A stretch of 24,596 nt of DNA from Phycisphaerales bacterium UBA1845 (GTDB taxonomy: Bacteria > Planctomycetota > Phycisphaerae > UBA1845). Location of the stretch: contig DDIR01000134.1 in the NCBI GenBank assembly GCA_002338715.1, forward strand, positions 1 through 24,596, read 5' to 3'. Positions 1-19,968 of the stretch are shown here, piece after piece. The translations under genes and the position numbers were made by a program. The first letter of the stretch is position 1. Each line of letters begins with the position of its first letter. Under the pieces are notes generated by a model, which was not told where the DNA came from, searched no databases, and worked only from the letters and a program-made list of their open reading frames with translations.

Positions 1-20
1 TTCAAATCCTCTCGCCCCGA
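1..20 (+). tRNA. 3' end of a tRNA gene, probably tRNA-Pro (cut by window start)
   Basis: The first 20 bases fit the 3' part of a tRNA: T-loop TTCAAAT, T-stem 3' strand CCTCT, acceptor 3' strand CGCCCCG and discriminator A. No CCA is encoded. The 5' half lies outside the window, so the anticodon cannot be read. A C1-G72 pair with A73, implied by the acceptor strand, is typical of bacterial tRNA-Pro, whose 5' acceptor often begins CGGGG; this identity is inferred. Confidence 0.7.
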
Positions 21-44
21 TTTTTGCCCGCAAGCGGGCAAAAA
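21..44. repeat. Perfect 10-bp inverted repeat directly after the tRNA
   Basis: TTTTTGCCCG and CGGGCAAAAA pair perfectly around a CAAG loop, starting at the base after the tRNA discriminator. The T-run precedes the stem and the A-run follows it on both strands, so it is not a canonical intrinsic terminator, which needs the T-run after the stem. It may still stop transcription or guide tRNA 3' processing. Confidence 0.75.
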
Positions 45-598
45 TAGAGCAGGTGAGCACAGGATCAGGTGAGCAGGTGAAACGACAATCACTTGGGCAT
101 CTATCGTGTTCAATGCTCGATTCCCTCACCTGCGGTCCCCCGCTCAACTGATCACCTGCTCTGTCGTTGCCGTTCATCGGTGTCGTTTCGCCATCCGGCC
201 GAACTTCGCCAAGTCATTCGCGTTCCCAATGCCAGAGGTTTATCGAAAGTCGCTTCATCTGGCAGACGGCATCGTTCGGCTGATTCGAGCGGTGTCTTCT
301 TCGTCGCTGACTGAACCGCGATGCGAATGTCACCGTCCGTCAGCGCATGATTCCGCGCGAGCGGGTGGCGTCGTTGATTGGGATTGGTTGTACCGTTACT
401 GCTGGACGTGCCCGCGCGCACATCAGCCGATCCTTGACCGTCCGTATTCGGAAACTCTTTCGGCTTGGCGTGCTCCTCGTCCGCGCTAGGAAGGTGTCAT
501 TGGTGGGTCAGATGTTACGCATGTGGAGCACCAGCCACGAACCGAACGTCGCTCAAACCGATCGCACGCCACCATGAGTCATCCGACTACCTACCAGG
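45..598. other. About 550 nt with no convincing gene
   Basis: Open frames of up to 127 codons exist on both strands here, but they overlap each other, have compositions typical of chance frames in GC-rich DNA and show no recognisable domain. Apart from the short repeats at 47-161, I see nothing I can name. It could be decayed coding sequence next to the tRNA. Confidence 0.4.
47..161. repeat. Short repeat cluster of GAGCAGGTGA, direct and inverted
   Basis: The 10-mer GAGCAGGTGA occurs at 47-56 and 71-80, and its exact reverse complement TCACCTGCTC at 152-161. CAGGTGAGCA is also repeated at 50-59 and 66-75, and a further inverted TCACCTG sits at 126-132. The function is unknown; it could be a structured RNA, a protein-binding array or a remnant of a recombined region. 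Confidence 0.5.
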
Positions 599-843: not shown

Positions 844-1419
844 ATGCCTGCAAGTGCTTTATCGTGCGATGCCTGCAACAAGTCGTTTCGAGTGATCTCG
901 AATCAAGCTGGTCGAAACGTGCGCTGCCCGCATTGCAGCGCCATCATTTTCGTTCCGCCGACGCTGTTTGATGTGCCAAGCGATGACCCTGTCACCGTTC
1001 CCGTTCCGTCGTTTCCGACGACCGAAGTGCCTCAGGAATTCGACCCCATGGAATCTGAACAAGGTGGTCGCGAAGAATCGCTGGAAGAAGTCGCAAGGGC
1101 TGTCCGTGAGTCGGATCGCCAGCGCAGTCGACGTGCCGCCCCGAAAGCCACTTTGGTCTTTACCTATTCAGTGTTGGCGAAGCGCGTCAACTTGATCGGT
1201 AACATCGTGCTTGTCATAGCCGCGTTGGTGGAGATCTATGCGCTTGTCACCATGGAGTGGGGTGTTGTCGCGATGCTGCCCTTCAAGGTGGCGCTGCCCG
1301 CGTTTGCGTTGGCGCATTTTCCGGCCGGCTGGATCGCAATTACAGGTGTGTTTTTGCTGGTTGCGGCGCATCACACTGAATACCTGGCTCGAATCGACGC
1401 ATCGCTGGAATCGCAATGA
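844..1419 (+). CDS. MJ0042-like zinc-ribbon membrane protein, first gene of the GTPase operon
   Basis: This 191-residue protein carries an N-terminal zinc ribbon, C8-x2-C11-x16-C28-x2-C31 with CPHC as second knuckle, like the MJ0042/zinc-ribbon families frequent in planctomycetes and myxobacteria. An acidic, proline-rich linker (about 37-80) and a basic patch lead to two or three hydrophobic segments between about residues 118 and 180. The ATG at 844 is preferred over a TTG at 778 because AAGGA (832-836) sits 7 nt upstream of it. Only 31 nt separate it from the GTPase gene, implying co-transcription. I infer that the ribbon is cytoplasmic and acts as a sensor, adaptor or scaffold for the GTPase; nothing seen proves this. 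Confidence 0.8.
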   Translation: MPASALSCDACNKSFRVISNQAGRNVRCPHCSAIIFVPPTLFDVPSDDPVTVPVPSFPTTEVPQEFDPMESEQGGREESLEEVARAVRESDRQRSRRAAPKATLVFTYSVLAKRVNLIGNIVLVIAALVEIYALVTMEWGVVAMLPFKVALPAFALAHFPAGWIAITGVFLLVAAHHTEYLARIDASLESQ

Positions 1420-1450
1420 CTTATCAACGTTGGGTTTTTGCCTTAACAAT

Positions 1451-2440
1451 ATGATGAACACGGACCCTGCTGCCATTGATCCCGCGTCGCTTCCTCTCGC
1501 CGAAACGATTTTCGACGAAAGCGAAACCCGCGCGCCAAGGGTACGCGACAGGATCGTTATGCTGGGGCGGCGAACCTCAGGTAAAACGGTTTATTTGAGC
1601 GTTCTCTACGAGCAATTCTGGAAGTCGCTTGATGGCTTGACCATGAAAGCCGTCAGCGGTCAGGTGCATTCCGATTGTGTGCGGGTTGTGGAGGGGTTGC
1701 GTGCGGGGCATTGGCCTGCGGCGACGTTGGAGACTCAGCATTGCGACCTGGAGATTGAGTACAAAGGTCAGCGTCATTTGTTGGTTGCACTCGACTATGC
1801 AGGTGAGTTATTTCGACGTGCATTTGTCGAAGACGTTACGGATACGGCTGAGACGATTGAACTGGTCAAGCACATTGATTCGGCGGCGGCTGTGATGATC
1901 CTGATCGACGCGTCCGTCGTACTTGGCAAGGATGTCGACGCGGCTATCGATGATGATTTTGGAATGACGCAAGCAGTCATGCGGATACGCAATTGGCCGG
2001 GCGGGAAAGACATTCCCATCGTGCTTGTCTTTACCAAAGCCGACGAAAATCGCGATGTTATTCGCAACGAAGGTGGGCTTGAAGGGTTCGTCAAACGCCG
2101 GTTGCCCGCGCTGGCTCGCACCGTTAAGCGTGCGGCGATGTTCCAGGTGTCGGCTGTCCAGGTCAACATCCACAGCGACGGCAAACGCACGCCAGTTCCT
2201 AATTCTACACCGTGGCAAATTGAAAAGCCGCTTCGCTTTTGCCTCGACAAGATCAATCTGCAGCGTGAACTCGAACGTCAGCGCGAATTCGCATTGGAGC
2301 AGCGACGATCACAGGAAGCGTATGAACTCGAATTGGAGCGGGCCTCAAAACGCCAGAACAAGACGGCGGTGATTGTCGTCGTTTCGATGGTTGTCGTGGC
2401 CGCGTGTGTCATCGCATTGGTCTGGGCATTCAAATCGTGA
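1451..2440 (+). CDS. TRAFAC-like GTPase with C-terminal membrane anchor
   Basis: The 329-residue product has a P-loop G39-RRTS-GKT46, a Walker B/switch II motif D115-YAG-E119 and a base-specificity motif TKAD (195-198), in the order and spacing of a TRAFAC-class GTPase domain. DxxGE in place of a typical DxxGQ resembles small GTPase-like domains associated with GAP1-type partners. A charged, probably coiled-coil stretch (about 270-302) precedes one TM near 304-326, leaving a two- to three-residue tail, so the GTPase domain should be cytoplasmic and tail-anchored. ATG at 1451 or 1454 is the start; no clear Shine-Dalgarno sequence precedes it, as expected for a coupled internal gene. Its stop overlaps the start of the next gene by four bases (GTGA). 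It could be an ATPase-like relative, but TKAD favours GTP. Confidence 0.82.
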   Translation: MMNTDPAAIDPASLPLAETIFDESETRAPRVRDRIVMLGRRTSGKTVYLSVLYEQFWKSLDGLTMKAVSGQVHSDCVRVVEGLRAGHWPAATLETQHCDLEIEYKGQRHLLVALDYAGELFRRAFVEDVTDTAETIELVKHIDSAAAVMILIDASVVLGKDVDAAIDDDFGMTQAVMRIRNWPGGKDIPIVLVFTKADENRDVIRNEGGLEGFVKRRLPALARTVKRAAMFQVSAVQVNIHSDGKRTPVPNSTPWQIEKPLRFCLDKINLQRELERQREFALEQRRSQEAYELELERASKRQNKTAVIVVVSMVVVAACVIALVWAFKS

Positions 2441-4680
2441 TTGTGAATCTCTCCCGGCATGTTTTTGGCAGTCACCAAGGGTATCGCACGTTGGCGGCGA
2501 GCGAAGATCTAACCGCCGATGAATTGGCGGAGCTTCAATCATTTGTGTTCGGGCAGACGAACAACGCTGAATATCTTGCGACGCTCAAGAGCACACCGGC
2601 TTACTGGTCGCGGCAACTGTCGTCGGGACGACGCGCCGTTACCCGCGTTTTTGTCGGCCCGAAGGATGATCAGGGGCGACAATCGTTGCGATTTGTCAGT
2701 GCTATTCTGTATGCGAAGGACTGGATTTCAGCGATCAACGGTGAAGATGGTGCTTTGGTTGGCGTTGACAAAATATGGTCGTGGGACGGGAAGCCTCGAT
2801 TGCCACGTATTGAAGTTCGAGTGACCAAGCCGGATCTTGTAAACCCGAATGCCGAGCAGCGTCAGCGAATTCTGTCATTGGTTGGGTTGATCGAGTCGAT
2901 GAGCAATTCGCCCAACTCCAGTATCGTTGTTGAGGAACGGCAACTCGCCCCGGCGGAATTCGCGATGGTGCTTGCGCTGTTGCCGGTTTGGTTTCGCCCG
3001 CAGTTCTCGTATGGATTTCGCAGTCTGAGTGAGGCTCTGCCTGTCCAACTCAACTATCTCGCTCCCTGTGCATCACGAGGCAAATCGCGCCGAAAGGTCA
3101 CGCCATGGCGACCCCATGGCGGTTATGCATCTGCAAAATATGCTTCGGGTCTGGCGCATTTTTGGCCCGAGGGCGGTCCGCCGCCGTGGGAGTTTGTGGA
3201 GAACTGCAAAGCATTTGGCGACTTGCTTCCGACGTTTGAAGGGACCGAAGTCTCCAGTGGAACCGTTGCGCCGCCTGCACCAACGCTGAAGCAAAAGCGA
3301 CGCCAGCAACGTCGCCAACCGCGCGTGCCGAGAATTGTCTACTGGCTGACGGCGATGGCATTGATCATTGGCGCAACGACGTATGTGGCTGTCAATACGA
3401 TCATGTCGCGCCGACATGCCGACGCCGTGTTGGATGCGGCTGACGCATTCTTGACTGAGAATGCAGATTCATCGCAACTGCCTGCGGCGGGGCACAAGCG
3501 CAAGAAGATCATCGAGACCGCTCAATCGCACGCGGATGAAGTGGCGGACCTGACAGATTCTTCCCGAGCCGATCGACGTGATGCGGTGGCGACGAAGCTC
3601 AATGACTGGCTTTCAGCCGCTGGTGACAAGGACACGAAGTTGGTCTCGCTGGACGAAATGCTCACCAGTTTCGAGACGTTTGCAAAACCCCTGGGCCTGG
3701 AAAATCCGGAAAGCTTGGTGGAAATTCCCGACGCCACATCGCGATCCGCGGTGGTGGGTTGGAAGAAACGGTTGGAGGACTCCCAGGCAGAAGCTAGCCT
3801 GATGGGCGAACCGTATCCAACCAAGATCGCCAGCGCATTGAATCGCATCCACGATTGGAACGTAAGGATCAAGGAACTTTTGAACCAGTGCGATGCCGGT
3901 CTCGACGGTATTCTCAAGATACTCGGTGGTCCGCTTCCAACGACTTTGACCAATGCAATCGACCGTACTTGGAGCGATGTGCAGTCGCAACTGGCTAAGA
4001 TCGACAAGATATTGCCTGAAGCGCAGGTCGGCGACGTCAGCCCGGCCGATCCCACCACCATCGATGAATACCTTTCGGAACTGATGGAACAAAGGGATTC
4101 CGTTCAGCATCGCGTTGACAGTTGGGCAAAACACATCAACAAGATCAAATCAGAGATGAATGAATTCCTGGATGAGGCGAAGGGCTTGGTTGCTGAACAC
4201 AAGCTCAAATTTGATCCAGTCGATGCGGAGGCTATTCAGAAACCTTGGACAGGTGCGGCAAGTGCCAAGGGGGCTTTGGAGCAGGCGCTTGACTACTGGC
4301 CCGATTCTGAGGAGATGCTTTTGCTTGAGGAAACCGTGGAAAGCTGGATGAACAAAGCCGCCGATCTGGCCATGGCACATTTCAATAAGGCAATTGATCA
4401 GGCGGATTCAATCTGGTACGACGAGAAAAAACGTAGCTCCGTGGACGCTCAATCAAACGGTTTGTCGACTCTTCCCCCAAACCCGACTGAAGCGATCAAG
4501 AGTCTCAACGTGGCTCTCGACTATTGGGACGCGAACAGCTCCGCCATTCGGCACTTCGATGCTCGTATGGCAGATCGGCGGCATCGGCAGGCGGTGTCAT
4601 TGAAGACCGAACTAATCAACGCGAATTCCAACTACGACAAAGTTGTAAATCCGACACCGTCACCAACGCCTAAGCCGTAG
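2437..4680 (+). CDS. GAP1-like GTPase-associated protein with TM and helical ectodomain
   Basis: Residues 1-about 270 resemble the N-terminal and middle domains of GTPase-associated protein 1: an early QGYRTLAASEDLT segment, an RVFVGPKDDQGRQSLRF strand region and a LPVWFRPQFSYGF motif. A very basic stretch (KQKRRQQRRQ) then precedes one TM at about 302-322, giving N-inside topology. The remaining 420 or so residues are charged, Trp-containing and helical-looking, ending in PTPSPTPKP, and would lie outside the membrane. The start is taken as GTG at 2437, which overlaps the GTPase stop (GTGA) and implies translational coupling; GTG 2443 is an alternative. At 747 residues it is large for the family because of the ectodomain. 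Inferred role: GTPase partner transmitting its state across the membrane. The family call rests on motif resemblance only. Confidence 0.65.
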   Translation: MIVNLSRHVFGSHQGYRTLAASEDLTADELAELQSFVFGQTNNAEYLATLKSTPAYWSRQLSSGRRAVTRVFVGPKDDQGRQSLRFVSAILYAKDWISAINGEDGALVGVDKIWSWDGKPRLPRIEVRVTKPDLVNPNAEQRQRILSLVGLIESMSNSPNSSIVVEERQLAPAEFAMVLALLPVWFRPQFSYGFRSLSEALPVQLNYLAPCASRGKSRRKVTPWRPHGGYASAKYASGLAHFWPEGGPPPWEFVENCKAFGDLLPTFEGTEVSSGTVAPPAPTLKQKRRQQRRQPRVPRIVYWLTAMALIIGATTYVAVNTIMSRRHADAVLDAADAFLTENADSSQLPAAGHKRKKIIETAQSHADEVADLTDSSRADRRDAVATKLNDWLSAAGDKDTKLVSLDEMLTSFETFAKPLGLENPESLVEIPDATSRSAVVGWKKRLEDSQAEASLMGEPYPTKIASALNRIHDWNVRIKELLNQCDAGLDGILKILGGPLPTTLTNAIDRTWSDVQSQLAKIDKILPEAQVGDVSPADPTTIDEYLSELMEQRDSVQHRVDSWAKHINKIKSEMNEFLDEAKGLVAEHKLKFDPVDAEAIQKPWTGAASAKGALEQALDYWPDSEEMLLLEETVESWMNKAADLAMAHFNKAIDQADSIWYDEKKRSSVDAQSNGLSTLPPNPTEAIKSLNVALDYWDANSSAIRHFDARMADRRHRQAVSLKTELINANSNYDKVVNPTPSPTPKP

Positions 4681-4695
4681 CTTCAATTACAGGAA

Positions 4696-5928
4696 ATGGG
4701 GTCAATTGTGGCTCAACAACATCTCAATACGTTGATCGCTCAGGCACGCGCGTTCTTGGATGCCCATGAACCTGCGGATGCGATGCGACTTTTGGAGCAG
4801 GCTCGGATGCTTGCCCGCGACGATGTTGATGCCCTTGGGCACGTTCACATTTTGCAAGCCAAGGCGTCTGCGCTGCTTCATCGAGGCGATGATGTTGTTG
4901 TCTATGCGCAGAAAGTCGTGCAACTGGATCGCGCTCATGAGTCGTCGCTGGGCAATTTGATTCAGCTTTGCGAGGAACGGCGTATGGATGACGCAGCCGC
5001 CCGGCTTAAGACGATCGGCGGGTTCGCACAGAATCCGCGAGGATCATCGCCAGGTCTGCGGCGTGTCTTGATGGTTTCGTGTATCAGCATCTTGCTGACA
5101 ACTTTTGTTGTCTTGTGGAAGCTGGACGTGATCTCGTTTGGTTTCTTGAAGGGAAGCGTGCAGAAAGCTGAGCGTTTGGATTTTGAACGCATACGCGAAA
5201 ACGTTGGGCTCGTTGTCGTTTCGGCCAAGTACACCTATCTGGATGGCCACAGTGTGACGCACGCCATTGGAACGGGCTCGTGTTTTGCCGTTTCCGCCGA
5301 CGGGTATCTTCTGACCAATCGCCATGTCACGGAAGCCCGCCACGATGTGCCCAACGAATTGATCGAAAACGATACGCTGTTTGGTCGGCGCGACCATTGG
5401 AAAATCAAAGTCTGCTTCGGTCCGGACGAATCCGAACACTTTGAGGCCAAGCTGGTCTTTGAAAGCCCGTATTTCGACGTCGCAGTCCTGAAGATTGATC
5501 ACACCTTCAGCAATTATCTTAAACGAGCAAAGGGGTGGGCGGCTGGCGATGATGTGTATGCCGCGGGATTCCCCGGCGCAGTCAGTGACGCGATGGCGGC
5601 TAAGAACATCTCCGAAATCGTTCGCAATGCCGTTGCGGAACTCGCCAAGCCCGATGCAGACATCAGCATGATGAAGCTCACGGAAGCCGCATACGATGTC
5701 ACGGTTACTCGTGGCGTCATCAGCGCTACCCGAAGCATCGAAGGTCAAAACCACATTCAAACTGACGCAGCCGTCACTCCGGGCAACAGCGGCGGACCAT
5801 TGCTGACCCGTGACTGCGAAGTTGTGGGTATCAACACTTGGGTCACCACGCAATCGGAGGCATACAACTTTGCCCTCGATCTTGAGGACATGATCGCAGA
5901 GTTAGAGCGATTTGTTGATATCAAGTAA
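4696..5928 (+). CDS. Membrane-anchored trypsin-like serine protease with N-terminal TPR-like domain
   Basis: The C-terminal half is a chymotrypsin/DegP-like protease with a complete triad: His210 in TNRHV, Asp261 in FDVAVLK and Ser365 in TPGNSGGPLL. Residues 1-110 form TPR-like helices (ALLHRGDDVVVYAQKVVQLD is one half-repeat). One TM at about 124-143 follows an Arg-rich turn, so the helical domain should be cytoplasmic and the protease outside. No PDZ domain follows, unlike DegP/HtrA. AGGA lies almost against the ATG at 4696, so GTG 4708 may be the true start (406 instead of 410 residues). Fifteen nt separate it from the GAP1-like gene; it is the last gene of the operon and the likely effector. 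Its substrate is unknown; the intact triad suggests it is active. Confidence 0.85.
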   Translation: MGSIVAQQHLNTLIAQARAFLDAHEPADAMRLLEQARMLARDDVDALGHVHILQAKASALLHRGDDVVVYAQKVVQLDRAHESSLGNLIQLCEERRMDDAAARLKTIGGFAQNPRGSSPGLRRVLMVSCISILLTTFVVLWKLDVISFGFLKGSVQKAERLDFERIRENVGLVVVSAKYTYLDGHSVTHAIGTGSCFAVSADGYLLTNRHVTEARHDVPNELIENDTLFGRRDHWKIKVCFGPDESEHFEAKLVFESPYFDVAVLKIDHTFSNYLKRAKGWAAGDDVYAAGFPGAVSDAMAAKNISEIVRNAVAELAKPDADISMMKLTEAAYDVTVTRGVISATRSIEGQNHIQTDAAVTPGNSGGPLLTRDCEVVGINTWVTTQSEAYNFALDLEDMIAELERFVDIK

Positions 5929-6143
5929 GTCGCAAGGCCACCCCGTTTTTTGCCATGCCTACGACAGTCACGCTTGAATCAACGCATGTGAGTTGATCTT
6001 GAGCAGTCGACCCCCTTATGATGAAAATCTTGCCCCGAAATTGGGTGGATGTGTTGGCCCGTTACCGGGTTTCTTTTTGGGCTTGGGCCGAGGCGGGCTT
6101 TGGCGGGGATTGGCAATTGAAACTTGCGTTGAGGACGAATGGA

Positions 6144-7169
6144 ATGGCACTTCAGAAGAAGTTCACTTGTTGGACATCGGGTATTTTCTTGATCTTGATG
6201 GGCACGGCGGCTGTTCCAGCACGTGCGCAGTTTCTCTGTGAACCCGGCACCGTCAGCCCGAGTGGCTTGCAGCCTTGCTCAGATTGCCCGCCGGGGACTT
6301 TTCAGCCCGACAGCGGTGAGTCGAGCTGCATCCCTTGCAGCCCGGGTCGATTCGCGCCGACGCCGGGTGCTGCGGTTTGTATCCTTTGCGCACCGGGTAC
6401 GTTTGCGTCCAACCCTGGACAGCAATCCTGCCAGCAATGCCAAACGGGAACGTTTGCGGCTGCACCCGGCTCCAACGCTTGTCAGCCGTGTGTGCCCGGA
6501 AGCTATGCGGCGACTCCCGGCCAAACGCAGTGTGATCTTTGCGAGGCTGGAACGGCTCAACCGCAAAGCGCTGCGGACGAGTGCGTCGAATGCTCGCCGG
6601 GTTACTTCGCAGGTAGCCCAGGCCAGCAATCATGTGTCGCGTGTCCTCCTGGAAAGATTCAACCGCTACCGGGGTCTGCCCTCTGTGAAGATTGTCCTGC
6701 GGATACGTTTCAAGATCAGTCTGGGCAAATTGAATGTCTGTTATGTCCATCGTGCGAAACATCGCCAGCTGGCAGCAGCATGTGCTCACTGGCAGACTGC
6801 ATGGACATTGACATGGATGGATTCGGACAGTTCGGTTGTCCGACATGCACGGGTGGGACGGCGATCGACTGCGATGATCTTGATGATACGACCTATCCAG
6901 GGGCTCCCGAAATCTGCGACGATCTGATCGACAACGACTGCGATTTTGCACCCGACTGCGCCGACCCTGAGTGCGCGCTAACTCAAGTATGCGGCGGACC
7001 TGATTCGGATGGTGACGGTGTTGTCGACATCGATGATGTGTGCAACAACACGCCGCCGGGTCTGGCGGTCGATGCGGCGGGTCGCCCACTTGGCGACATC
7101 GATCACGATTGTGATACCGACCTTGCGGACTTTCAACTCTTCGCAAGTGGTTTCAGCGGCCCGCTTTAG
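6144..7169 (+). CDS. Secreted Cys-rich protein with GCC2/GCC3-like repeats and Ca-binding C-terminus
   Basis: A 341-residue exported protein. The signal peptide runs to about residue 28 (PARAQ). Ten units of the form CxPGxFxxxPGxxxCxx, nine of 17 residues and one of 16, follow (from residue 32), resembling the GCC2/GCC3 or ephrin-receptor-like class. Then come a MopRED-like metal-binding motif (DCDDLDD...YPGAPEICDDLIDNDC), a thrombospondin-type-3-like DSDGDGVVDIDD segment and a dockerin-like tail (DIDHDCDTDLADFQLF). ATG at 6144 is chosen over upstream starts because GAGGA lies 8 nt before it and the signal peptide begins there. A terminator follows 27 nt after the stop. Probably a surface or matrix protein; the ligand is unknown. 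Confidence 0.8.
   Translation: MALQKKFTCWTSGIFLILMGTAAVPARAQFLCEPGTVSPSGLQPCSDCPPGTFQPDSGESSCIPCSPGRFAPTPGAAVCILCAPGTFASNPGQQSCQQCQTGTFAAAPGSNACQPCVPGSYAATPGQTQCDLCEAGTAQPQSAADECVECSPGYFAGSPGQQSCVACPPGKIQPLPGSALCEDCPADTFQDQSGQIECLLCPSCETSPAGSSMCSLADCMDIDMDGFGQFGCPTCTGGTAIDCDDLDDTTYPGAPEICDDLIDNDCDFAPDCADPECALTQVCGGPDSDGDGVVDIDDVCNNTPPGLAVDAAGRPLGDIDHDCDTDLADFQLFASGFSGPL
6237..6743 (+). repeat. Ten tandem units of about 51 nt encoding CxPGxF...PG...C repeats
   Basis: The protein reading shows ten consecutive Cys-Pro-Gly units, nine of 17 residues and a first one of 16, each with two cysteines. The DNA between units is clearly diverged, so the repeat is old and constrained at protein level rather than a recent slippage expansion. 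Confidence 0.8.
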
Positions 7170-7195
7170 AAGCCACGCACATCCTGAATGACCAT

Positions 7196-7233
7196 GTCGC
7201 CGTTGCACGCGCACAGTTGCGTTCAACGGCGAC
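7196..7233 (+). terminator. Intrinsic terminator after the Cys-repeat gene
   Basis: GTCGCCGTTG (7196-7205) pairs perfectly with CAACGGCGAC (7224-7233). Inside, ACGC and GCGT add four pairs after one unpaired base on each side. The downstream arm is followed by TTTATTGTT. It begins 27 nt after the stop codon at 7169. Confidence 0.7.
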
Positions 7234-7756
7234 TTTATTGTTCCCCATCTGACATGGCGCTCAATCGTGCTGTCGCCGATCGCTTCGGGCTGTCTCGGGG
7301 TGATGGGTGGTTGAGGTTGCGATTGATTGAACGCATTGAGCGGATTGGTTGGTGTGGCCATGCTGGGTTCCGGATTCGCAACGGTTGGTTTCCGGCCGAA
7401 CGGCGGGCACAACTTGGCAGTGCGGCGGCTGGTGGGGTATTATCGTGGTCAGCCATCGTTGCGCCATACGTCAAATCAGGATCGACGGTATCTGGGGCCG
7501 GCAGTTCTATCGTCTCGATTGACGGGGTGGAACTGCGGGCCTTGTGCAAGAGTTGATGGGCTGTTCATCGGCTGATGGTTCAAATCTCATAAGGCCCCGC
7601 GGGCAGTCGGTAGGTGTTTGCTATCGGTTGGCGACGATGTGTGAATCGGGTTGTTCTTTGCGTTTCACGATTCGCCCGGATTGATCCGGTGCACATCGTT
7701 GACGTCGATCATATCTTCGCGGCAACACAGCCGCCTTAGAAAGGAGGCCTGCAGAC
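7234..7756 (+). other. Upstream region of citrate synthase, one possible leader hairpin
   Basis: No convincing gene is visible in these 520 nt. ACGATGTG (7634-7641) and CACATCGT (7692-7699) can pair, extendable to about ten pairs with one G-T, and GAATCG/CGATTC can pair inside it. This could be a structured 5' leader of the citrate synthase mRNA, but it matches no riboswitch that I recognise. The promoter is not obvious. Confidence 0.35.
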
Positions 7757-9055
7757 ATGGGAACACTCCAAGAGACTCTCCGAGCCAAGATCCCTCAATG
7801 GCGCGAAGAGATTGCAGAAGTCAAAGCGACGATGGGTGACAAAGTCATTTCGGAGGTGACCGTCAACCAGGCGTATGGCGGGATGCGCGGCGTCAAGTGC
7901 ATGGTCTGTGACACGTCGGTTGTCGATCCGGACAAGGGGTTGATCATTCGTGGTCATCCGTTGTTGGAAATCAAAGACCTGCGTCCGGAAGAAATCTTCT
8001 TTTTGCTTTTGACTGGTGAACGGCCCGACGCGGATGCAAAAGCGGCGCTGCAGCACGAGTTCGATCGCCGCTCGCAGGTTCCCGACTACGTTTGGGATTT
8101 GCTGAAGGCGATGCCCCGTGACAGCCATCCGATGTGCATGCTCGACACGGGCATTTTGGTGATGGAGCGCGAGAGCGTGTTTCGCCAGTGGTATGACAAG
8201 GGGATGCGCAAGGAAGACTATTGGATTCCGATGCTGGGCGATGCGCTGAACATTCTCGCAAGGATGCCGGTGATTGCGGCTGGCGTTTATCGCATCCGTT
8301 ATGAGAAAGGAAGCGTCAAGACGTGGACGCACGGTTTGGACTGGGGTGCGAACTTCGCCAACATGCTGGGTATTCCTGACCCGACCGAAGCGTACGCCAA
8401 GTTGATGCGTATCTATTTGAGCTTCCACGCCGATCACGAAGGGGGAAACGTTTCCGCGAACACATGCCACACGGTTGGGTCGTCGTTGTCCGATGCGTAT
8501 TACTCGGTGTCGGCTGGCTTGAATGGGTTGGCCGGTCCGCTGCATGGACTCGCCAATCAGGAATGCCTCAAGTGGGTGCTGGAGTTGATGGCTCGTTTCG
8601 GCGGCTCGCCGACGCAGGAGCAATTGCGCGAGTTTGCATTCGAAACGCTGCGGTCCGGTCAGGTGATACCCGGTTATGGACACGCGGTTCTTCGCGTGGT
8701 CGATCCGCGATTCGCCGGTTTCCTCGAGTTTGGCCGCAAGTACATTGCAGACGACCCGGTGTTCAAAACGGTGTCGGATATTTTTGACGTGGTTCCGAAA
8801 GTGTTGGAGGAGTACTCTGACGAGCGCGTCAAAGCCGGCAAGTCGCCGATCGCCAACACCTGGCCCAACGTGGACGCGGTGTCGGGTTCGCTTCAGTACG
8901 CATTTGGTTTGACCGAATTTCCGTTCTACACGGTGCTGTTTTCGGTGTCGCGGGCGATGGGTATGCTATCGCAACTGGTGCTGAATCGCGCGATCGGAAC
9001 GGCGCTGACGCGACCGAAGTCGGTTTCGACAGCTTGGATCAAGAAGCAGAAATAG
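7757..9055 (+). CDS. gltA: Citrate synthase, mitochondrial-type (type I)
   Basis: Condenses oxaloacetate and acetyl-CoA to citrate and CoA at the entry of the TCA cycle, in the cytoplasm. The 432-residue sequence is close in layout to animal mitochondrial citrate synthase (437 residues mature): SFHADHEGGNVSANT, AGPLHGLANQE with His263 (pig His274), GYGHAVLR with His309 (pig His320), and WPNVDAVSG with Asp373 (pig Asp375). All catalytic residues are present. A nine- to ten-residue insertion before WPNVD explains the changed offset. An ideal Shine-Dalgarno sequence AAGGAGG (7741-7747) lies 9 nt before the ATG. It appears monocistronic and is convergent with the next gene. Most bacteria use a different, NADH-regulated or short-form type, so this eukaryote-like type is notable. 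Methylcitrate synthase activity cannot be excluded. Confidence 0.95.
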   Translation: MGTLQETLRAKIPQWREEIAEVKATMGDKVISEVTVNQAYGGMRGVKCMVCDTSVVDPDKGLIIRGHPLLEIKDLRPEEIFFLLLTGERPDADAKAALQHEFDRRSQVPDYVWDLLKAMPRDSHPMCMLDTGILVMERESVFRQWYDKGMRKEDYWIPMLGDALNILARMPVIAAGVYRIRYEKGSVKTWTHGLDWGANFANMLGIPDPTEAYAKLMRIYLSFHADHEGGNVSANTCHTVGSSLSDAYYSVSAGLNGLAGPLHGLANQECLKWVLELMARFGGSPTQEQLREFAFETLRSGQVIPGYGHAVLRVVDPRFAGFLEFGRKYIADDPVFKTVSDIFDVVPKVLEEYSDERVKAGKSPIANTWPNVDAVSGSLQYAFGLTEFPFYTVLFSVSRAMGMLSQLVLNRAIGTALTRPKSVSTAWIKKQK

Positions 9056-9112
9056 AGCGGAATAGACACCACGTTTTGCGTGGAGCCAAACCGACCTCCA
9101 CATTCGATAACG

Positions 9113-9152
9113 GGCGAGCCCTCATTAGCGCAAGTGCTTGTGAGGGCTCGCC
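9113..9152. terminator. Perfect 12-bp stem between convergent genes, possible bidirectional terminator
   Basis: GGCGAGCCCTCA (9113-9124) and TGAGGGCTCGCC (9141-9152) pair perfectly around a 16-nt loop. No T-run follows on either strand, so termination, if any, would not be classical. The position, 57 nt after citrate synthase and 62 nt beyond the end of the minus-strand gene, suits a shared terminator. It may equally be a copy of a dispersed palindromic repeat. Confidence 0.55.
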
Positions 9153-9214
9153 GCCTGAACGAATTGAATTTGTTCTCACCACATACAGCAGCGACTGAGT
9201 TTCGTGCCGTTCGG

Positions 9215-10720
9215 TCAATTGTCGAGTAGATCGATCCGAATGAAACCAAGTACCCATTCGTCTGATGTGCTGCAACCGAGTCCACTGTCCTCGGTTCGCA
9301 GAGCGCGAAACGCAACCACGTCGTTGGAGCAAGAAACGTCAGTGGCCATCACGCTGCCAGTAATTGGATCATGCTCCGGATCTTCAAAGTCGGTGAATTC
9401 ACCACCGGTACTCATTTGCAGATAGTCCCACTCGTCGTCGATTGGACCGGTGCCGGCGAGAAACCAGCGACTGCCATCGGGAGTCAAGCACATCGATGCG
9501 TAGAAGCCGATCTTCTTGTCGGCGTCGTGGCATTCCGCCTGCGTCAGAGAGGAAAAGTCAACGTTGGAATCACGAAGGTCATACGTGTCAAACTGGCTTG
9601 CCAGCGTGGAACCGGGCGCATCCGACACTTGTCCGATCGCGCTTCGAAAGCTCATGCCCGCGCCGGATTGTGCGTCGAGGTCTTCGCGCCATTGGGCGTA
9701 TCCGAATCGACCATTGTTGAGAACAACCTGGGCGTTGTGGGTCGACGGATTGTTGGTGAAGGTCGTGATGGTGCCGTTATTCAGGTTCAACAAGACCGCG
9801 TTGGTTGTTCCGAGTCCCAGGGGAAAGTCTGGTGGGTCCTGTTGATAAAGAATCCAATCTCCATCGAATTGCATTTGCACGCCGTCATTGATGCAGCACA
9901 TGTCGTTGGCCAAGGTCATCTCGACGAACTGTGGTGCGCTTCCTGGCGAATCAATATCCCAAACATACAGGCCTTCGCCTCCGGCGGCTACGACGCGACG
10001 CGAGCCGGAATCGACTGCAACCTGGTCGAACGTCTCGATGGGCTCATCAATGCTGCTTGTCGGATTGGGAAACGAGATGACTTTCCACGCATTGGGGTCG
10101 CTTCCCGCAACGTCGATCACCTTGATTGCATTTCCGTCTGCGACTTGATTGGTGTCGTTGATGGTGGCGAAAAGATTACCCGACGCCTGCGTCAATCCCG
10201 GCAAACGATCGTCATTCATCTGTGTGTTTCGGAGCAACAGGTCGGATGTGGAAAACTCCTTTGACTGACCCGTGGCCGTGTCATACACGCGCACGTTTCC
10301 CAGGCTGGTCACGAGCGCAATCTTTTTTCCGGCGACTGCGAAGTGAGTCCAGGCAAATCGTTCACCTTCGGGAACCTCGATTCCCGCATCTGTCTCATCA
10401 GACGACTCAGACGGGACGATGTAGTACACCGTTTCTGAATCGCCCCAAACGATCAAGTCGTCGCCGGTTTGGGGACGCATGATCAGCGTGTTGTCGTCCA
10501 TGATGATCCGGGTTTTGACCAGAGTCTCGTCTTGATTGGTATTGCTTCCATTGCTTCCTGTCCCTCCGTTACCGTTTGGATCGTCGCCGTTGGAGTTGCT
10601 GTTGCCATTGGTGTTGCCGCCATTGTCGGTTGGCGCTGGCGGATTACAGGACAAACCAGATGCTGCCAACATGGCGAAAGCCACTCCGATCAATACACGC
10701 CTTGTTTTTGTATTCTTCAT
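9215..10720 (-). CDS. Exported, lipoprotein-like beta-propeller-type protein of unknown function
   Basis: A 501-residue protein starting MKNTKTRRVLIGVAFAML, with a hydrophobic signal and a Cys at residue 25 (SGLSC) that would be the lipidation site, though Gly rather than Leu at -3 is atypical. A Gly/Asn/Ser-rich linker of about 35 residues (NGNSNSNGDDPNGNG) tethers the rest. Beyond it, repeated strands such as GNVRVYDTATGQS, GNAIKVIDVAGSD and GGEGLYVWDIDSPG suggest WD40- or YVTN-like propeller blades. ATG at 10720 is preferred to one at 10756 because the signal peptide begins there. It is divergent from the repeat-protein gene at 11444. No enzymatic motif is seen. Confidence 0.7.
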   Translation of the reverse strand: MKNTKTRRVLIGVAFAMLAASGLSCNPPAPTDNGGNTNGNSNSNGDDPNGNGGTGSNGSNTNQDETLVKTRIIMDDNTLIMRPQTGDDLIVWGDSETVYYIVPSESSDETDAGIEVPEGERFAWTHFAVAGKKIALVTSLGNVRVYDTATGQSKEFSTSDLLLRNTQMNDDRLPGLTQASGNLFATINDTNQVADGNAIKVIDVAGSDPNAWKVISFPNPTSSIDEPIETFDQVAVDSGSRRVVAAGGEGLYVWDIDSPGSAPQFVEMTLANDMCCINDGVQMQFDGDWILYQQDPPDFPLGLGTTNAVLLNLNNGTITTFTNNPSTHNAQVVLNNGRFGYAQWREDLDAQSGAGMSFRSAIGQVSDAPGSTLASQFDTYDLRDSNVDFSSLTQAECHDADKKIGFYASMCLTPDGSRWFLAGTGPIDDEWDYLQMSTGGEFTDFEDPEHDPITGSVMATDVSCSNDVVAFRALRTEDSGLGCSTSDEWVLGFIRIDLLDN

Positions 10721-11443
10721 ATTGCGTTGCCCCAAAAATGTGAAGACCCGCGGCATCCGCGCATTCGTTTGTCAACGTGATTTGGCATGGTCTTCTGAGT
10801 CTTCGTTGCGCCTGCGGAACGCCGACGCTTCAATTCGTGTCGTGATGGAGAGCCTGGACTTGAAGTTATCGCCAAGCCGCCCTTCGCGCGCACCGACACA
10901 CTGATTTCGTATCACAGCCGATGAAATGGGATTCATGGAATGCGGTGGTTCATGGTCCAAGCCGGGCACCTGATGTGCACATGGGCTTTGGCGTTTCACC
11001 TGTGGACCACCCGTTCCGCCAAATGCTCACCACCGGCGGAATCTAAAGTCTACAACATATTTGTGCAGCTGGCGTGGGTAATGGCGCATAGGCCGGGAGT
11101 TGCCAAGTGGTCGGCACTGACCGCAATTGCGATTGTCAGCGTGGATTCCCTCGCTTCCCAATCTTAATGCACGGCATATGCTGGCGATTCATATAACTCC
11201 CAATCACGGCTGGACTTGGGGATTCGGTTGTCGGTCGGGTAGCGGTGGGCGATCCGCGAAGCGATCTCGGCCCACGGACGCCCGGGCGAATTGCAGAAGA
11301 ACCATTAGAATGAGGGCAGGTATGGGCCGGGATCGCCGCGGCAGGCCGTTGCAGACCCAAGCGGCTCGACATCGCTCGAATACTGTTTTCGATTTTGATC
11401 TTGCGGCACTGATCCTTTCGCAAGATGAACTTGGGGGGAAGCC
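10721..11443. other. 723-nt divergent intergenic region without a recognisable gene
   Basis: This gap separates two divergently transcribed genes for exported proteins and should hold both promoters. Short overlapping frames of up to 106 codons are present on both strands without domain signature. I see no strong hairpin, tRNA or repeat. A small RNA or small peptide gene cannot be excluded. Confidence 0.4.
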
Positions 11444-14404
11444 ATGATCAAGCACACGTCAATCGTCTATTCAATCTTCTGCATCGTATCGATTGCTTTC
11501 GCCGATCGGGTGTCTGCGCAATGCGCGTTCTTTGATGACTTCCAGCGGCCCGACAGTACGACGCTGGGTTTTGGATGGGTCGAGGACGAAACGATTGCTT
11601 CTGAAATCCTGCTGACGTCGTTCGGCGAGTTCGGCTACGTCGACATCGTCGGGCAGGGCGTCGCACCAGTCAGCATGACACAATCGAACATCGATACTTC
11701 CAGCCTCACCAATCCGGCGATCACCTTTGTTTGGCAGGGGCGAAACGGAGACGCGGAAGCTGGCGACGTCCTTCAACTGGACTGGCGATTGAGCGGAGGC
11801 ACCTGGGAACAACTCGGTGAATTCGAACTGACCAATACGTTGACGACGGTGACGGAGATTCCGTTACCGCCCGCCGCACTGAATACGAGCATCGACTTTC
11901 GCTTTGTTGTGATCGTCGACACATTTCAGGAAGGCGTCTTGTTGGATGACGTGGGTGTCTGCAATTCCGCCGGGCCTACCGACTGCAATTCCAATGGCAT
12001 CGACGACGGACTCGACATTGCACTGGGGACGAGCCTCGACGAAAACGCCAACGCAACGCCAGATGAGTGTGACGAATGTGTATTCGATGTTGATTGCAGC
12101 AACGGGCTGTTTTGTGATGGCGTGGAAATCTGCCTGGTCGACATTTGTCAGTTTCAGTCACCGCCATGCGTTGCGGGCCAACTGTGCGATGAACTTAACG
12201 ACCTATGTGTCGCCGACGGTGCAGACTGCAACAACAACGGCATCGGTGACGTAGTCGACATTTCTGGCGGCACGAGTGACGACCTGAACGCCAACAATGT
12301 TCCCGACGAATGCGACGAGTGCGTGTTTGACGGTGATTGTGATGACGGCTTGTACTGCAATGGCATTGAAACTTGCAATATTGATACGTGCGTCGCGGGA
12401 ACTGTTCCGTGTGCGGTGGGCCAGGCCTGTGACGACGACACCGACTCGTGTCCGCCCACCGGCACCGACTGCAACACCAACGGCATCGGTGATGCGACCG
12501 ACATTTCAGGTGGATTCAGCGACGACCTTAATGCCAACAACATTCCCGACGAGTGCGACGGGTGTGTGTTCGACGCGGATTGCGACGACGGAATGTTTTG
12601 CAATGGCGACGAGACTTGCGCCGTCGATACTTGTGTTGCCGGCGGCGACCCGTGCAGCGTTGGTGAGATTTGCGACGACACAGAGGACTTGTGCATTGTC
12701 GCGATCGACTGCAATTCCAATGGCGTTAGTGATTTATTCGACATTGCGGGCGGTTCCAGCGACGACGTCAACGCCAACGAGGTTCCCGACGAATGCGATG
12801 AATGCGTGGTCGATGGCGATTGCAGCAATGGACTCTTCTGCGACGGTGAAGAGGTTTGCGACGTCGATCAATGCATTGGCGGAGCGTTTCCTTGTGTTGC
12901 GGGGCAGGAGTGTGACGAAGGTTCCGACGCCTGCTTCCCGATCGGCGCGGATTGCAATTCCAACGCCATCGGTGATGCGGCCGACATTGCCGGTGCAACG
13001 AGCGACGATGCCAACAGCAACGGCGTACCCGACGAATGCGATGCCTGCGTTCTTGATACCGACTGCAACGACGACGTGTTTTGCAACGGCGCGGAAGTCT
13101 GCAACGTCGACACTTGCACCAACGGCGTGATTCCGTGCGAGCTGGGTCAACTTTGCGACGAAGAATTCGATCTATGCCAGCCGGACGGTTCCGATTGCAA
13201 CACCAATGGCGTCGGTGACGCCTACGATATCGCACTTGGCACCAGCGCCGATCTCAACAGCAACGGCGTACCAGATGAATGCGATGCATGTGTGATTGAT
13301 GCCGATTGCGATGACGGCTTGCATTGCACGGGAATTGAAACCTGCAACATCGACACATGCGCGCCGGGCTCGAATCCGTGTCTGATCGGTCAGTCATGCA
13401 TTGAAGAAAGCGATACATGCGCGCCAACGGGGGCTGATTGCAACGCAAACGGCATCGGTGACGCCACCGACATCGCCGCGGGTACCAGCATGGACTGCGA
13501 TTCCAACGGGGTGCCCGATGCGTGCGACATCGCATTCGGTGACAGCAACGACTGCAACCTCAATGCAGTTCCAGATGATTGCGATCTGCTTTTCGGTGAT
13601 GCGTTCGATTGCAATACCAATGGTGCATTGGACGAATGCGACATCGCCGAAAAAATGTCAGATGACTGCGACACCAACGGTGTTCCCGACGAGTGTCAAT
13701 CCGATGGCGATGCCGACGGTGTGATCGATGCTTGTGATCTTTGTCCCGATACACCACCGGGATTGATCATGGGTGATGCCGGCTGTCCGCTTGCACTGGG
13801 ACCGTGCTGCTTCTTTGGCAAAATCTGCATCGACGATCGCCTAGAGAGCGAATGCACCATTCTGGATGGCACGTATCTGGGTGACGGGTTTACGTGTGAA
13901 CTTGATCCGGATGGTGACGGTGTCACCGGCTGCGATGACCGCTGCCCGTTTGATGGTCAAAAATCAGAACCAGGTATTTGCGGTTGTGGGGTGTCGGACA
14001 TGGACTCCGATCAGGATGGTCTGGTGGACTGTGTGGATCGATGTCCAAACACGCCGCTGGGCGATCCAGTCAATGCGTGTGGTTGCAGTGCTTTGGGGGC
14101 ATGCGCTTTCAACCAGGGGTTTTGTTGGGATGAGTTGGACGAGGCCACCTGCACGCTCATCAGCGGATTCTACCTTGGAGATGGATCGCTTTGCGACGAC
14201 GCATTTACCTTTGGCGACTTCGACCTTGACGGTGACGCCGACTTGGTCGACTTCGCGTACTTTCAAGAATGTTTCAACGCATCGAGCGACGGCGAGACAG
14301 ATTGGCCATGCGCTGCGGGAGACTTTGACGGGTGCGGTGACGTTGACATCGCGGACTACGAAGCGTTCTTCCGATTCCTGGACGGTCCAATCGCTGTGCC
14401 ATAA
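11444..14404 (+). CDS. Secreted 986-residue protein of tandem 81-residue Asp/Cys-rich repeats with dockerin-like tail
   Basis: A signal peptide (residues 1-25, ending VSAQ) leads to a beta-rich domain (26-about 175, FFDDFQRPDSTTLGFGW, resembling a jelly-roll). Six tandem units then run from residue 180 to 664. Each starts DCNxNGIGDxxDIAxGTSDD and includes VPDECDEC, a FCNGxExCxxDxC core and CDExxDxC. Four 19-residue short units (CxxNGVPDxCDIAxGxSxD) follow, then thrombospondin-3-like DGDADGVIDACDLCPDTPPG stretches, and finally paired dockerin-like loops (DFDLDGDADLVDFAYFQ and DFDGCGDVDIADYEAFF). The acidic loops suggest calcium binding and a stiff, disulfide-rich rod. ATG at 11444 follows GGGGGGAAGCC. 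Likely a cell-surface or matrix structural protein; the function is not known. Confidence 0.8.
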   Translation: MIKHTSIVYSIFCIVSIAFADRVSAQCAFFDDFQRPDSTTLGFGWVEDETIASEILLTSFGEFGYVDIVGQGVAPVSMTQSNIDTSSLTNPAITFVWQGRNGDAEAGDVLQLDWRLSGGTWEQLGEFELTNTLTTVTEIPLPPAALNTSIDFRFVVIVDTFQEGVLLDDVGVCNSAGPTDCNSNGIDDGLDIALGTSLDENANATPDECDECVFDVDCSNGLFCDGVEICLVDICQFQSPPCVAGQLCDELNDLCVADGADCNNNGIGDVVDISGGTSDDLNANNVPDECDECVFDGDCDDGLYCNGIETCNIDTCVAGTVPCAVGQACDDDTDSCPPTGTDCNTNGIGDATDISGGFSDDLNANNIPDECDGCVFDADCDDGMFCNGDETCAVDTCVAGGDPCSVGEICDDTEDLCIVAIDCNSNGVSDLFDIAGGSSDDVNANEVPDECDECVVDGDCSNGLFCDGEEVCDVDQCIGGAFPCVAGQECDEGSDACFPIGADCNSNAIGDAADIAGATSDDANSNGVPDECDACVLDTDCNDDVFCNGAEVCNVDTCTNGVIPCELGQLCDEEFDLCQPDGSDCNTNGVGDAYDIALGTSADLNSNGVPDECDACVIDADCDDGLHCTGIETCNIDTCAPGSNPCLIGQSCIEESDTCAPTGADCNANGIGDATDIAAGTSMDCDSNGVPDACDIAFGDSNDCNLNAVPDDCDLLFGDAFDCNTNGALDECDIAEKMSDDCDTNGVPDECQSDGDADGVIDACDLCPDTPPGLIMGDAGCPLALGPCCFFGKICIDDRLESECTILDGTYLGDGFTCELDPDGDGVTGCDDRCPFDGQKSEPGICGCGVSDMDSDQDGLVDCVDRCPNTPLGDPVNACGCSALGACAFNQGFCWDELDEATCTLISGFYLGDGSLCDDAFTFGDFDLDGDADLVDFAYFQECFNASSDGETDWPCAAGDFDGCGDVDIADYEAFFRFLDGPIAVP
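11981..13435 (+). repeat. Six tandem repeats, period 243 nt (one 240 nt)
   Basis: Units begin at 11981, 12224, 12467, 12707, 12950 and 13193, each at the codon for Asp before Cys-Asn. Five are exactly 243 nt and the third is 240 nt. The repeats are clear at protein level and moderately conserved in DNA. Confidence 0.9.
13439..13700 (+). repeat. Four and a half short repeats, period 57 nt
   Basis: Immediately after the long units, codons for CxxNGVPDxCDIAxGxSxD repeat every 57 nt, starting at 13439, 13496, 13553 and 13610, with a partial fifth from 13667. The same 19-residue element forms the first part of each 81-residue unit. Confidence 0.8.
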
Positions 14405-14578
14405 ACCCTAGGGGTACTGTTGGCGAAGTCCTGTTTTGTTGACGCGCTTTCAGCATCTATTCGATCTGTGCGGGCTCGATCAAGTCCCGGTAATTCACCC
14501 AGGTTGGATTCCTGTGGCGAGTAGCGTAGACTTCAGCGGGTCGGACGAAATTTCGATACGGCGGTTGCGGTCGGCATA

Positions 14579-16312: not shown

Positions 16313-16338
16313 GTTCGAGGGTTTGCCGGCTGGCTTGG

Positions 16339-19060: not shown

Positions 19061-19115
19061 ATTCATGCACTCCAATCACAACATCCTACCAACCAGGAAA
19101 AGGTCATCGCAAGCG

Positions 19116-19841: not shown

Positions 19842-19930
19842 ATCTTTGAACCTTGTTCTCGGTTTACATTGACTTTCTAGAAAGCCACCTTGTCGGATCG
19901 CAGCACGATTGCCCGCCAAGTGGAAACAGT

Positions 19931-19968
19931 GGCCGACCGACACCGGAGGATGGCGATGTCGGTCGGCC
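19931..19968 (-). terminator. Perfect 12-bp stem-loop between the two PEP-CTERM genes
   Basis: GGCCGACCGACA (19931-19942) pairs perfectly with TGTCGGTCGGCC (19957-19968) around a 14-nt loop. It lies 12 nt beyond the stop of the upstream PEP-CTERM gene on the minus strand. No real T-run follows, so it may be an attenuator or an mRNA-stabilising 3' hairpin rather than a full terminator. Confidence 0.55.

What the first reader, a model, noticed from the sequence alone, without database searches (positions are those of the whole stretch)
844..5928. Four-gene membrane operon: zinc ribbon, GTPase, GAP1-like protein and trypsin-like protease
Gaps of 31 nt, a 4-nt overlap (GTGA) and 15 nt bind four genes into one unit. 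Each product has a TM. Seen: intact P-loop, DYAGE and TKAD in the GTPase, full His-Asp-Ser triad in the protease. Established, from memory: TRAFAC GTPases with GTPase-associated protein 1 have been described computationally as parts of predicted NTP-dependent conflict systems, and trypsin-like domains occur as effectors in such systems. Inference: a cytoplasmic GTPase switch gating an extracytoplasmic protease. I know of no characterised system with this exact set-up.
Basis: partly seen in the sequence, partly recalled or inferred. Interest (0 to 1): 0.85.

Follow-up and report, generated by a model that had tools for sequence, protein, structure and literature searches.

The report
Membrane GTPase–GAP1–protease operon
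Four neighbouring bacterial genes appear to encode a membrane complex in which a small GTP-driven switch, a partner that crosses the membrane and a protein-cutting enzyme on the outer side are inherited together; it is an unusual version of a family so far described only by computer, and its function is untested.

Summary
In detail: four co-directional genes at 844-5928, with gaps of 31 nt, a 4-nt overlap and 15 nt. Gene 2 is a DO-GTPase. Gene 3 is a divergent GAP1-N2 protein: 23.9 bits against a cut-off of 24.0, but all 9 members of its alignment match. Gene 4 is an HtrA-like trypsin behind a TPR-like region and a TM. Gene 1 is a zinc ribbon with 2-3 TMs. This is a member of the GTPase-GAP1 'conflict' systems predicted by Kaur et al. 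2020, who already noted trypsin in some planctomycete GAP1-N2 loci.

New here: (i) GTPase, GAP1 and protease behave as a co-inherited cassette. GAP1 follows the GTPase in 32 of 35 loci, and a trypsin-family gene follows GAP1 in 11 of 26. (ii) GAP1 is predicted bitopic, with a variable helical ectodomain. (iii) Its cytoplasmic part resembles TagF, the type VI secretion repressor; both keep a near-invariant Asp-x3-Arg hairpin needed in TagF for partner binding. Sequence support alone is not significant. (iv) Four relatives carry MoxR and BatA genes just downstream.

Best reading: a trans-envelope GTP switch controlling an HtrA-like protease. The family assignment is firm; the gating step and the role are inference.

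The parts
844..1419 (+). Gene 1: zinc ribbon (residues 6-35) plus C-terminal 2-3 TM protein, 191 aa
   Evidence: homologues directly upstream of the GTPase in L004 and L072
859..948 (+). Zinc ribbon CxxC-16-CxxC of gene 1
   Evidence: TIGR02098 22.5 bits over its cut-off 20.9; Pfam Zn_ribbon_5 25 bits, under its cut-off 29.3
1451..2440 (+). Gene 2: tail-anchored DO-GTPase, 329 aa
1565..1588 (+). P-loop GRRTSGKT (residues 39-46)
   Evidence: G39, G44, K45, T46 invariant in 26 of 26 rows
1793..1807 (+). Walker B/switch II DYAGE (115-119) with the glutamate that marks DO-GTPases
   Evidence: D115, G118, E119 invariant in 26 of 26 rows
2033..2044 (+). TKAD guanine-specificity motif (195-198)
   Evidence: T195, K196, D198 invariant in 26 of 26 rows
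2366..2422 (+). C-terminal TM of the GTPase (tail anchor)
   Evidence: hydropathy and flanking K/R
2437..4680 (+). Gene 3: GAP1-N2-type GTPase-associated protein 1 with one TM and a large helical ectodomain, 747 aa
2437..3231 (+). Predicted cytoplasmic GAP1-N2 plus GAP1-M-like part (residues 1-265), TagF-like fold
   Evidence: Pfam; profile-profile alignment to canonical GAP1-N2/M; TagF 9t0n top structural match
2665..2679 (+). D-x-x-G-R hairpin loop (D77, G80, R81)
   Evidence: D, G and R each 38 of 38 in window-type GAP1
3334..3390 (+). TM of GAP1 (residues 300-318), preceded by 8 K/R in 15 residues
3403..4677 (+). Predicted extracytoplasmic all-helical domain of GAP1 (323-747), less conserved than the cytoplasmic part
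   Evidence: pLDDT mostly 85-96; mean pairwise identity 38% against 66% for residues 1-265 in the nine sequences of A1
4696..5928 (+). Gene 4: TPR-like N-terminus, one TM, trypsin-like (HtrA-type) protease without PDZ, 410 aa
   Evidence: the TPR match is weak (TPR_19, E 0.095)
5065..5121 (+). TM of the protease (residues 124-142)
5275..5832 (+). Trypsin_2 domain with H210, D261, S365
   Evidence: 75.2 bits, cut-off 27.6; triad aligned with relatives

Best explanation
A membrane-anchored variant of the DO-GTPase/GAP1-N2 systems, working as a trans-envelope switch. Shown by sequence: a DO-GTPase, a GAP1-N2 protein and a trypsin-family protease, each with a hydrophobic TM segment and encoded as one co-inherited unit. 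Inferred from hydropathy: the GTPase is cytoplasmic and tail-anchored; GAP1 has its GAP1-N2/M part inside and a 425-residue helical domain outside; the protease has a TPR-like part inside and its catalytic domain outside. Inferred mechanism: the TagF-like cytoplasmic part of GAP1 binds the GTPase (or the TPR-like part) through the Asp-x-x-Gly-Arg hairpin. The GTP/GDP state, the ectodomain's ligand state, or both, set the conformation of the GAP1-protease pair and so release or restrain proteolysis outside the membrane. The zinc-ribbon membrane protein is a membrane adaptor; the ribbon sits on other partners in relatives. Whether the trigger is a phage or an envelope disturbance is open.
For: Families. 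Nucleotide-binding motifs and the Walker-B glutamate invariant in 26 of 26 rows. GAP1 directly downstream of the GTPase in 32 of 35 loci (30 by script; L014 and L075 read). Trypsin-family gene directly downstream of GAP1 in 11 of the 26 loci with at least 600 bases beyond GAP1, where the 26 whole genomes hold 2-19 Trypsin_2 matches in 2.2-6.8 Mb. Distance matrices of the three proteins over 10 loci correlate (r 0.78, 0.80, 0.84; 0 of 2000 permutations as high). Topology by K/R flanks. Fold of the G domain and TagF-like fold of GAP1 with a matching D/R hairpin. The ectodomain is the more variable part.
Against: No interaction, nucleotide turnover or proteolysis was or could be tested. L066 has the GTPase, GAP1 and a TPR-TM protein whose frame stops before any catalytic domain, and L075 lacks the serine at the aligned position, so proteolysis is not always the output. 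In 15 of 26 loci no trypsin-family gene was recognised after GAP1 (one of them is L066); four have vWA proteins and one a two-component pair instead. The distance correlation partly reflects shared ancestry of the host genomes, and some of the 35 loci are close relatives. FNIII, usual in GAP1-N2 systems, was not found. The protease's inside/outside signal is weak (3 against 2 K/R). The GAP1 model has pTM 0.44 and low pLDDT at 200-300, and no Foldseek match reached E 0.001.
Confidence: 0.5

Rival explanations
1. An anti-phage abortive system: cytoplasmic sensing by GAP1 and the GTPase unleashes the protease, or the helical ectodomain, to damage the envelope of the infected cell. (This and the next rival are roles; both are compatible with the switch described above.)
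For: DO-GTPase/GAP1 systems were proposed as conflict systems on distribution and effector variability (PMC7159879). Patchy distribution: 20 of 298 genomes of the class and 11 of 114 of the order match, three of each weakly; four other genomes of the genus are listed without a match. Variable ectodomain.
Against: PADLOC models: no match for genes 1 and 2; for gene 4 matches to RT-Protease and candidate (PDC) models over the trypsin region, for gene 3 a weak match to JetC over helical residues 541-710. Among ten other long window ORFs scanned, the only PADLOC match (SduA) lies on a response-regulator domain. Within this clade the same protease partner recurs, which is less variable than a typical effector slot.
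Confidence: 0.25
2. An envelope-stress or protein-quality device of DegS/HtrA type: the ectodomain of GAP1, or a PDZ partner, senses misfolded envelope proteins; the GTPase sets the threshold; cleaved substrates signal or are cleared.
For: The protease domain is closest to HtrA/DegP/DegS models. PDZ proteins with a TM are encoded directly upstream in L063, L065 and L066. MoxR and BatA genes lie just downstream in L006, L063, L065 and L066, with DUF58 seen in the last three. DO-GTPase genes have been reported in some pspFABC operons (PMC11237479, passages only).
Against: No PDZ, MoxR or BatA was found in the four proteins or in ten other long window ORFs; the BatA matches of this genome lie on other contigs. 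The HtrA cut-off is far from met (86.1 against 416.2 bits).
Confidence: 0.4
3. Four ordinary genes that happen to be neighbours, with the protease working alone.
For: The order GTPase-GAP1-trypsin was not recognised in 15 of 26 relatives with room downstream.
Against: Overlapping and tightly spaced genes; trypsin-family gene after GAP1 in 11 of 26 loci and correlated divergence.
Confidence: 0.05

Closest known systems
DO-GTPase/GAP1-N2 GTPase-centric conflict systems (Kaur et al. 2020, PMC7159879; section 29 read)
   Same: DO-GTPase with Walker-B glutamate, GAP1-N2 protein encoded downstream, zinc ribbon, several TM components, GAP1 with a TM, presence in planctomycetes, trypsin as a linked gene in some.
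   Different: No FNIII component and no GYF domains found; the ribbon is a separate membrane protein and not on the GTPase; GAP1 carries a 425-residue helical ectodomain; the protease is TPR-like part, TM, trypsin.
TagF, post-translational repressor of type VI secretion (PMC5995506; abstract, outline and section 8 read)
   Same: Top structural match of GAP1 residues 1-207 (9t0n). Same strand-loop-strand hairpin with D and R: 38/38 and 38/38 in window-type GAP1, 18/18 and 18/18 in canonical GAP1, 38/39 and 39/39 in planctomycete TagF. In A. tumefaciens TagF the S/D/R triple mutant loses binding to Fha.
   Different: No TagF_N Pfam match; sequence profiles do not unite them significantly. No TagF_N match in this genome, so no sign of a T6SS context.
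HtrA/DegS membrane-anchored serine proteases
   Same: Single TM before a trypsin-like domain closest to HtrA models.
   Different: TPR-like N-terminal part, no PDZ; encoded with a GTPase and GAP1.
Rag/Gtr, Arf/Arl and MglA small GTPases
   Different: DYAGE in place of DxxGQ (the latter recalled), C-terminal TM, partner GAP1; a shared fold shows no function.

Membership tests
DO-GTPase (PF19993) | Pfam DO-GTPase2 model over its cut-off | tested here: met
   37.1 bits against 27
DO-GTPase (PF19993) | Conserved glutamate in the Walker B motif | tested here: met
   E119 in 26 of 26 aligned rows, window protein included; criterion from PMC7159879
GAP1-N2 system | GAP1-N2 domain | tested here: met
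   E 4.7e-5, 23.9 bits, 0.1 under the cut-off of 24 for the window protein; 9 of 9 members of A1 (itself included) match at E up to 1, best 1.3e-6; two of eight relatives carry PF20013 in precomputed annotation
GAP1-N2 system | GAP1-M domain | tested here: inconclusive
   No Pfam GAP1-M match. Profile-profile alignment with 18 canonical N2-M proteins: probability 18%, P 2.9e-4 with the nine A1 sequences; probability 54%, P 1.3e-4 with 38 sequences, colinear through the ALLP-R motif
GAP1-N2 system | GAP1-C domain | not tested
   no model at hand
GAP1-N2 system | GAP1 gene downstream of the DO-GTPase gene | tested here: met
   window; 32 of 35 loci
GAP1-N2 system | FNIII-repeat component | tested here: not met
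   no FNIII in the four proteins or ten other long window ORFs; the upstream flank is limited to 843 bases by the contig end
GAP1-N2 system | Zinc ribbons N-terminal on the GTPase (usual, not universal) | tested here: not met
   the ribbon is on the separate gene 1
TagF (PF09867) | TagF_N sequence model | tested here: not met
   not among Pfam matches of the protein or of the A1 members at E up to 1
TagF (PF09867) | TagF fold | tested here: inconclusive
HtrA/DegS | NCBIfam cut-off match and PDZ domain | tested here: not met
   86.1 bits against 416.2; no PDZ
Demonstrated anti-phage system | Phenotype against phage | not testable with these tools
   PADLOC models gave no match to the GTPase or gene 1

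The most novel reading that the evidence does not exclude
GAP1 of the DO-GTPase systems and TagF of type VI secretion share one ancestral regulatory module, whose Asp-x3-Arg hairpin binds a cytoplasmic partner. In this lineage the module has become a transmembrane receptor that couples a Rag/Arf-like GTPase inside to an HtrA-like protease outside: a bacterial GTP-driven trans-envelope proteolytic switch, in some relatives placed just upstream of MoxR-DUF58-BatA genes.
Probability: 0.28. Interest if true: 0.78.

Novelty: new variant of a known kind. Interest (0 to 1): 0.52.

Why it matters
DO-GTPase/GAP1 systems are, as far as I found, known only from computation: of 12 papers in the library with one of the five searched names, only PMC7159879 holds GAP1-N1 or GAP1-N2, and the passages I read there give no experiment on them. 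This operon gives a compact version with single-TM partners, a readable output (proteolysis) and a short, mutable candidate interface (D77/R81), so the basic question, whether GAP1 binds and reads a DO-GTPase, becomes testable. If the TagF link holds, a well-studied secretion repressor and an unstudied GTPase partner would be the same kind of module.

Tried and rejected
Rejected: that the four genes form one conserved four-gene unit. Gene 1 homologues were found only in L004 and L072 among 42 stretches, though other cysteine-motif membrane or protease proteins recur nearby.

Rejected as proof: the sequence link GAP1-TagF. hhalign scores were 17.8, 13.8 and 20.1 (P 0.12, 0.35, 0.054) for three GAP1 alignments against 39 TagF (of 41 genomes matched; two not fetched). 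Decoys: reversed alignments 13.8, 12.0, 15.9; GTPase alignment 17.5, protease alignment 16.6, GAP1 ectodomain 14.5; 40 column-shuffled versions of the combined GAP1 alignment at most 15.5. The three GAP1 alignments all lock on the same hairpin, but one true score barely exceeds, and one is below, the GTPase decoy. Two other TagF entries in the PDB (2qnu, 6iz8) are not among the 50 printed rows, and the tool warns that parts outside residues 395-734 are barely tested.

Led nowhere: PDB sequence search with the GTPase (0 matches), with GAP1 (17 matches up to E 10, best 0.0076, all in the helical part) and with a canonical GAP1 (0); promoters and terminators no more than in shuffles; no tRNA; a paper search for TagF with TssM and GTPase (8 papers, listing only, none with a title or shown abstract start about a TagF-GTPase contact); paper searches that gave no further paper on this family; one for a planctomycete GTPase/HtrA/MoxR link found 0. 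No solved fold is claimed or denied for the GAP1 ectodomain; its rows are generic helical proteins.

Some of the 35 loci are close relatives (L015/L017/L026; L018-L025), so they are not independent. The 38 window-type GAP1 sequences are nine from A1 and 29 from loci; L075, L080 and pieces under 200 residues were left out. Absence of trypsin in 15 of 26 loci rests on my own protease profile and Pfam on some; the match list was capped. In the surveys 3 of the 20 class matches and 3 of the 11 order matches are weak (E about 1e-4), and 23 of the 27 phylum matches are at E 7.6e-7 or worse. The GAP1 profile found 8 of 392 genomes with at most two candidates scored per genome.
Full report
OBSERVATION. 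The window is a complete contig of 24,596 bases (C70) of a 5.2 Mb draft genome in 148 contigs. Within it the operon sits next to ordinary genes: an Ephrin_rec_like/MopE protein, citrate synthase, a hybrid histidine kinase and others.

FAMILIES. Gene 2 passes Pfam DO-GTPase2 (37.1 bits, cut-off 27). Gene 3 matches GAP1-N2 at E 4.7e-5, 0.1 bit under the cut-off. Gene 4 passes Trypsin_2 and Trypsin. All nine members of alignment A1 (the window protein and eight relatives) match GAP1-N2 at E up to 1, best 1.3e-6. An alignment of 38 GAP1 proteins of this type aligns colinearly, through the ALLP-R motif of GAP1-M, with 18 canonical GAP1-N2/M proteins (hhalign probability 54%, P 1.3e-4; with the nine alone 18%, P 2.9e-4). 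GAP1-M is therefore likely but not proven. [quoted passage not shown]

NEIGHBOURHOODS. I examined 35 loci with a GTPase match of E < 1e-20, the window included. GAP1 follows on the same strand in 32: 30 by script, and L014 and L075 by reading, because their stop-to-stop frames overlap more than the script allowed. Of the other three, L072 ends at a contig end, L074 has a truncated GTPase frame running into a protease frame, and L070 has no recognisable GAP1. In 26 of the 32 at least 600 bases follow GAP1. There a trypsin-family gene comes next in 11: the window, L004, L006, L008, L010, L063, L064, L065, L068, L073 and L075. A Pfam Trypsin_2 match supports each. L004 and L064 are cut by contig ends before the serine. 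Of the other nine, eight keep H, D and S, and L075 lacks the serine at the aligned position. In a twelfth, L066, the gene in this place ends after the TPR-like part and TM. Elsewhere the next gene is a vWA protein (L011, L014, L015, L026) or a response regulator and kinase (L009); I did not annotate every remaining case. The 26 whole genomes searched hold 2 to 19 Trypsin_2 matches each, so adjacency in 11 of 26 is far from chance. Pairwise distances of GTPase, GAP1-N/M and protease over 10 three-gene loci (all but L075) correlate at r 0.78-0.84, with 0 of 2000 permutations as high; host relatedness contributes to this.

DISTRIBUTION. A profile of the GTPase finds 20 of 298 genomes in the class (three weak), 11 of 114 in the order (three weak), and 27 of 343 in the phylum (23 weak). 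Four other genomes of the genus are listed without a match. In the phylum sample only two genomes outside the class match better than E 1e-15 (G515, G597). Of the 24 contigs, two bear record titles of Bacteroidota (L016, L024), which I did not check. The system is patchy and, in strong form, mostly seen in one class.

MODULE SWAPPING. Gene 1, the zinc-ribbon membrane protein, has clear homologues only in L004 and L072, directly upstream of the GTPase. In L063, L065 and L066 the upstream gene encodes a TM protein with a PDZ domain, with a RING-like match in L063 and, below its cut-off, in L066. In L010 and L073 a cysteine-pair motif sits at the N-terminus of the protease itself. The ribbon therefore seems to move between partners. 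In L063, L065 and L066 one uncharacterised gene and then MoxR, DUF58 and BatA genes follow the protease gene (or its remnant); in L006 the next ORF carries a MoxR domain in its C-terminal half and a BatA gene follows. Kaur et al. state that MoxR-vWA and DO-GTPase-GAP1 core pairs are not exchanged (passage), and 'DUF58' and 'BatA' do not occur in that text. Here generic MoxR/BatA genes stand beside a DO-GTPase cassette. I claim adjacency, not functional coupling.

TOPOLOGY AND MECHANISM. Positive flanks put the N-termini of GAP1 (8 K/R before the TM, 2 after), the GTPase (4 before, 1 after) and the protease (3 before, 2 after; weak) inside. The cytoplasmic part of GAP1 is conserved (66% mean identity among nine) while the ectodomain is variable (38%), as expected of a constant switch-reading part and a sensing part. 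I therefore favour a trans-envelope device. Shown: domains, order, co-inheritance. Inferred: membrane sides, GAP1-GTPase contact through the D/R hairpin, control of proteolysis. The loss of the catalytic domain in L066 and of the serine in L075 warns that this partner may have a role beyond proteolysis.

ROLE. Defence and envelope stress both remain. For defence: the published proposal and the patchy distribution. For envelope stress: the HtrA-like protease, PDZ partners, MoxR/BatA neighbours, and the report of DO-GTPase genes in some psp operons (PMC11237479, passages). PADLOC models do not recognise the GTPase or gene 1, and no clear defence gene was seen among ten other long window ORFs. 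I lean slightly to envelope surveillance.

VERDICT. A new variant of a known, untested kind. The family call is firm, the mechanism moderate, and the TagF connection is the most novel part.

Noticed in passing
L106 (G000:C23:33000-51000), 5965-16396: A second, canonical GAP1-N2/M system in the same genome: cysteine-motif TM protein, DO-GTPase (28.2 bits), GAP1 (75.2 bits N2, 25.6 bits M), a 980-aa TM protein and a MotA/TolQ/ExbB-family protein.
   Followed up: partly
L079:10243-11139 (+): A third DO-GTPase in the same genome with an N-terminal cysteine motif and no recognised GAP1 next to it; the next frame (11527-12444) has no Pfam match.
   Followed up: partly
L006, L063, L065, L066: MoxR and BatA genes (DUF58 too in the last three) just downstream of the GTPase-GAP1-protease cassette.
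   Followed up: partly
L006:4407-6128 (+): Gene between a zinc-ribbon 4-TM protein and the GTPase with a weak FHA-like Yop-YscD_cpl match (below its cut-off); notable because TagF binds an FHA protein.
   Followed up: no
L066:7081-7545 (-): Protease orthologue that stops after the TPR-like part and TM; no trypsin domain follows in that frame.
   Followed up: yes
L074: GTPase frame truncated and running directly into a protease frame without GAP1: a decayed locus or an assembly fault.
   Followed up: no
L010: Two DO-GTPase genes and two GAP1-type genes flank one trypsin gene in a single run.
   Followed up: no
window 1-268: Dispersed repeat at the contig end, with three further partial copies (78-82% identity) on two other contigs of the genome.
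   Followed up: partly
window 6018-7169 (+): Protein with five Ephrin_rec_like repeats and a MopE copper-binding motif, 89 nt after the protease gene; whether it belongs to the operon was not tested.
   Followed up: no
window 16339-20856 (-): FG-GAP/ASPIC protein, a dockerin-matching protein and one with a PEP-CTERM match just under its cut-off in a row, near a sigma-70 family gene at 21219-21842 (+).
   Followed up: no
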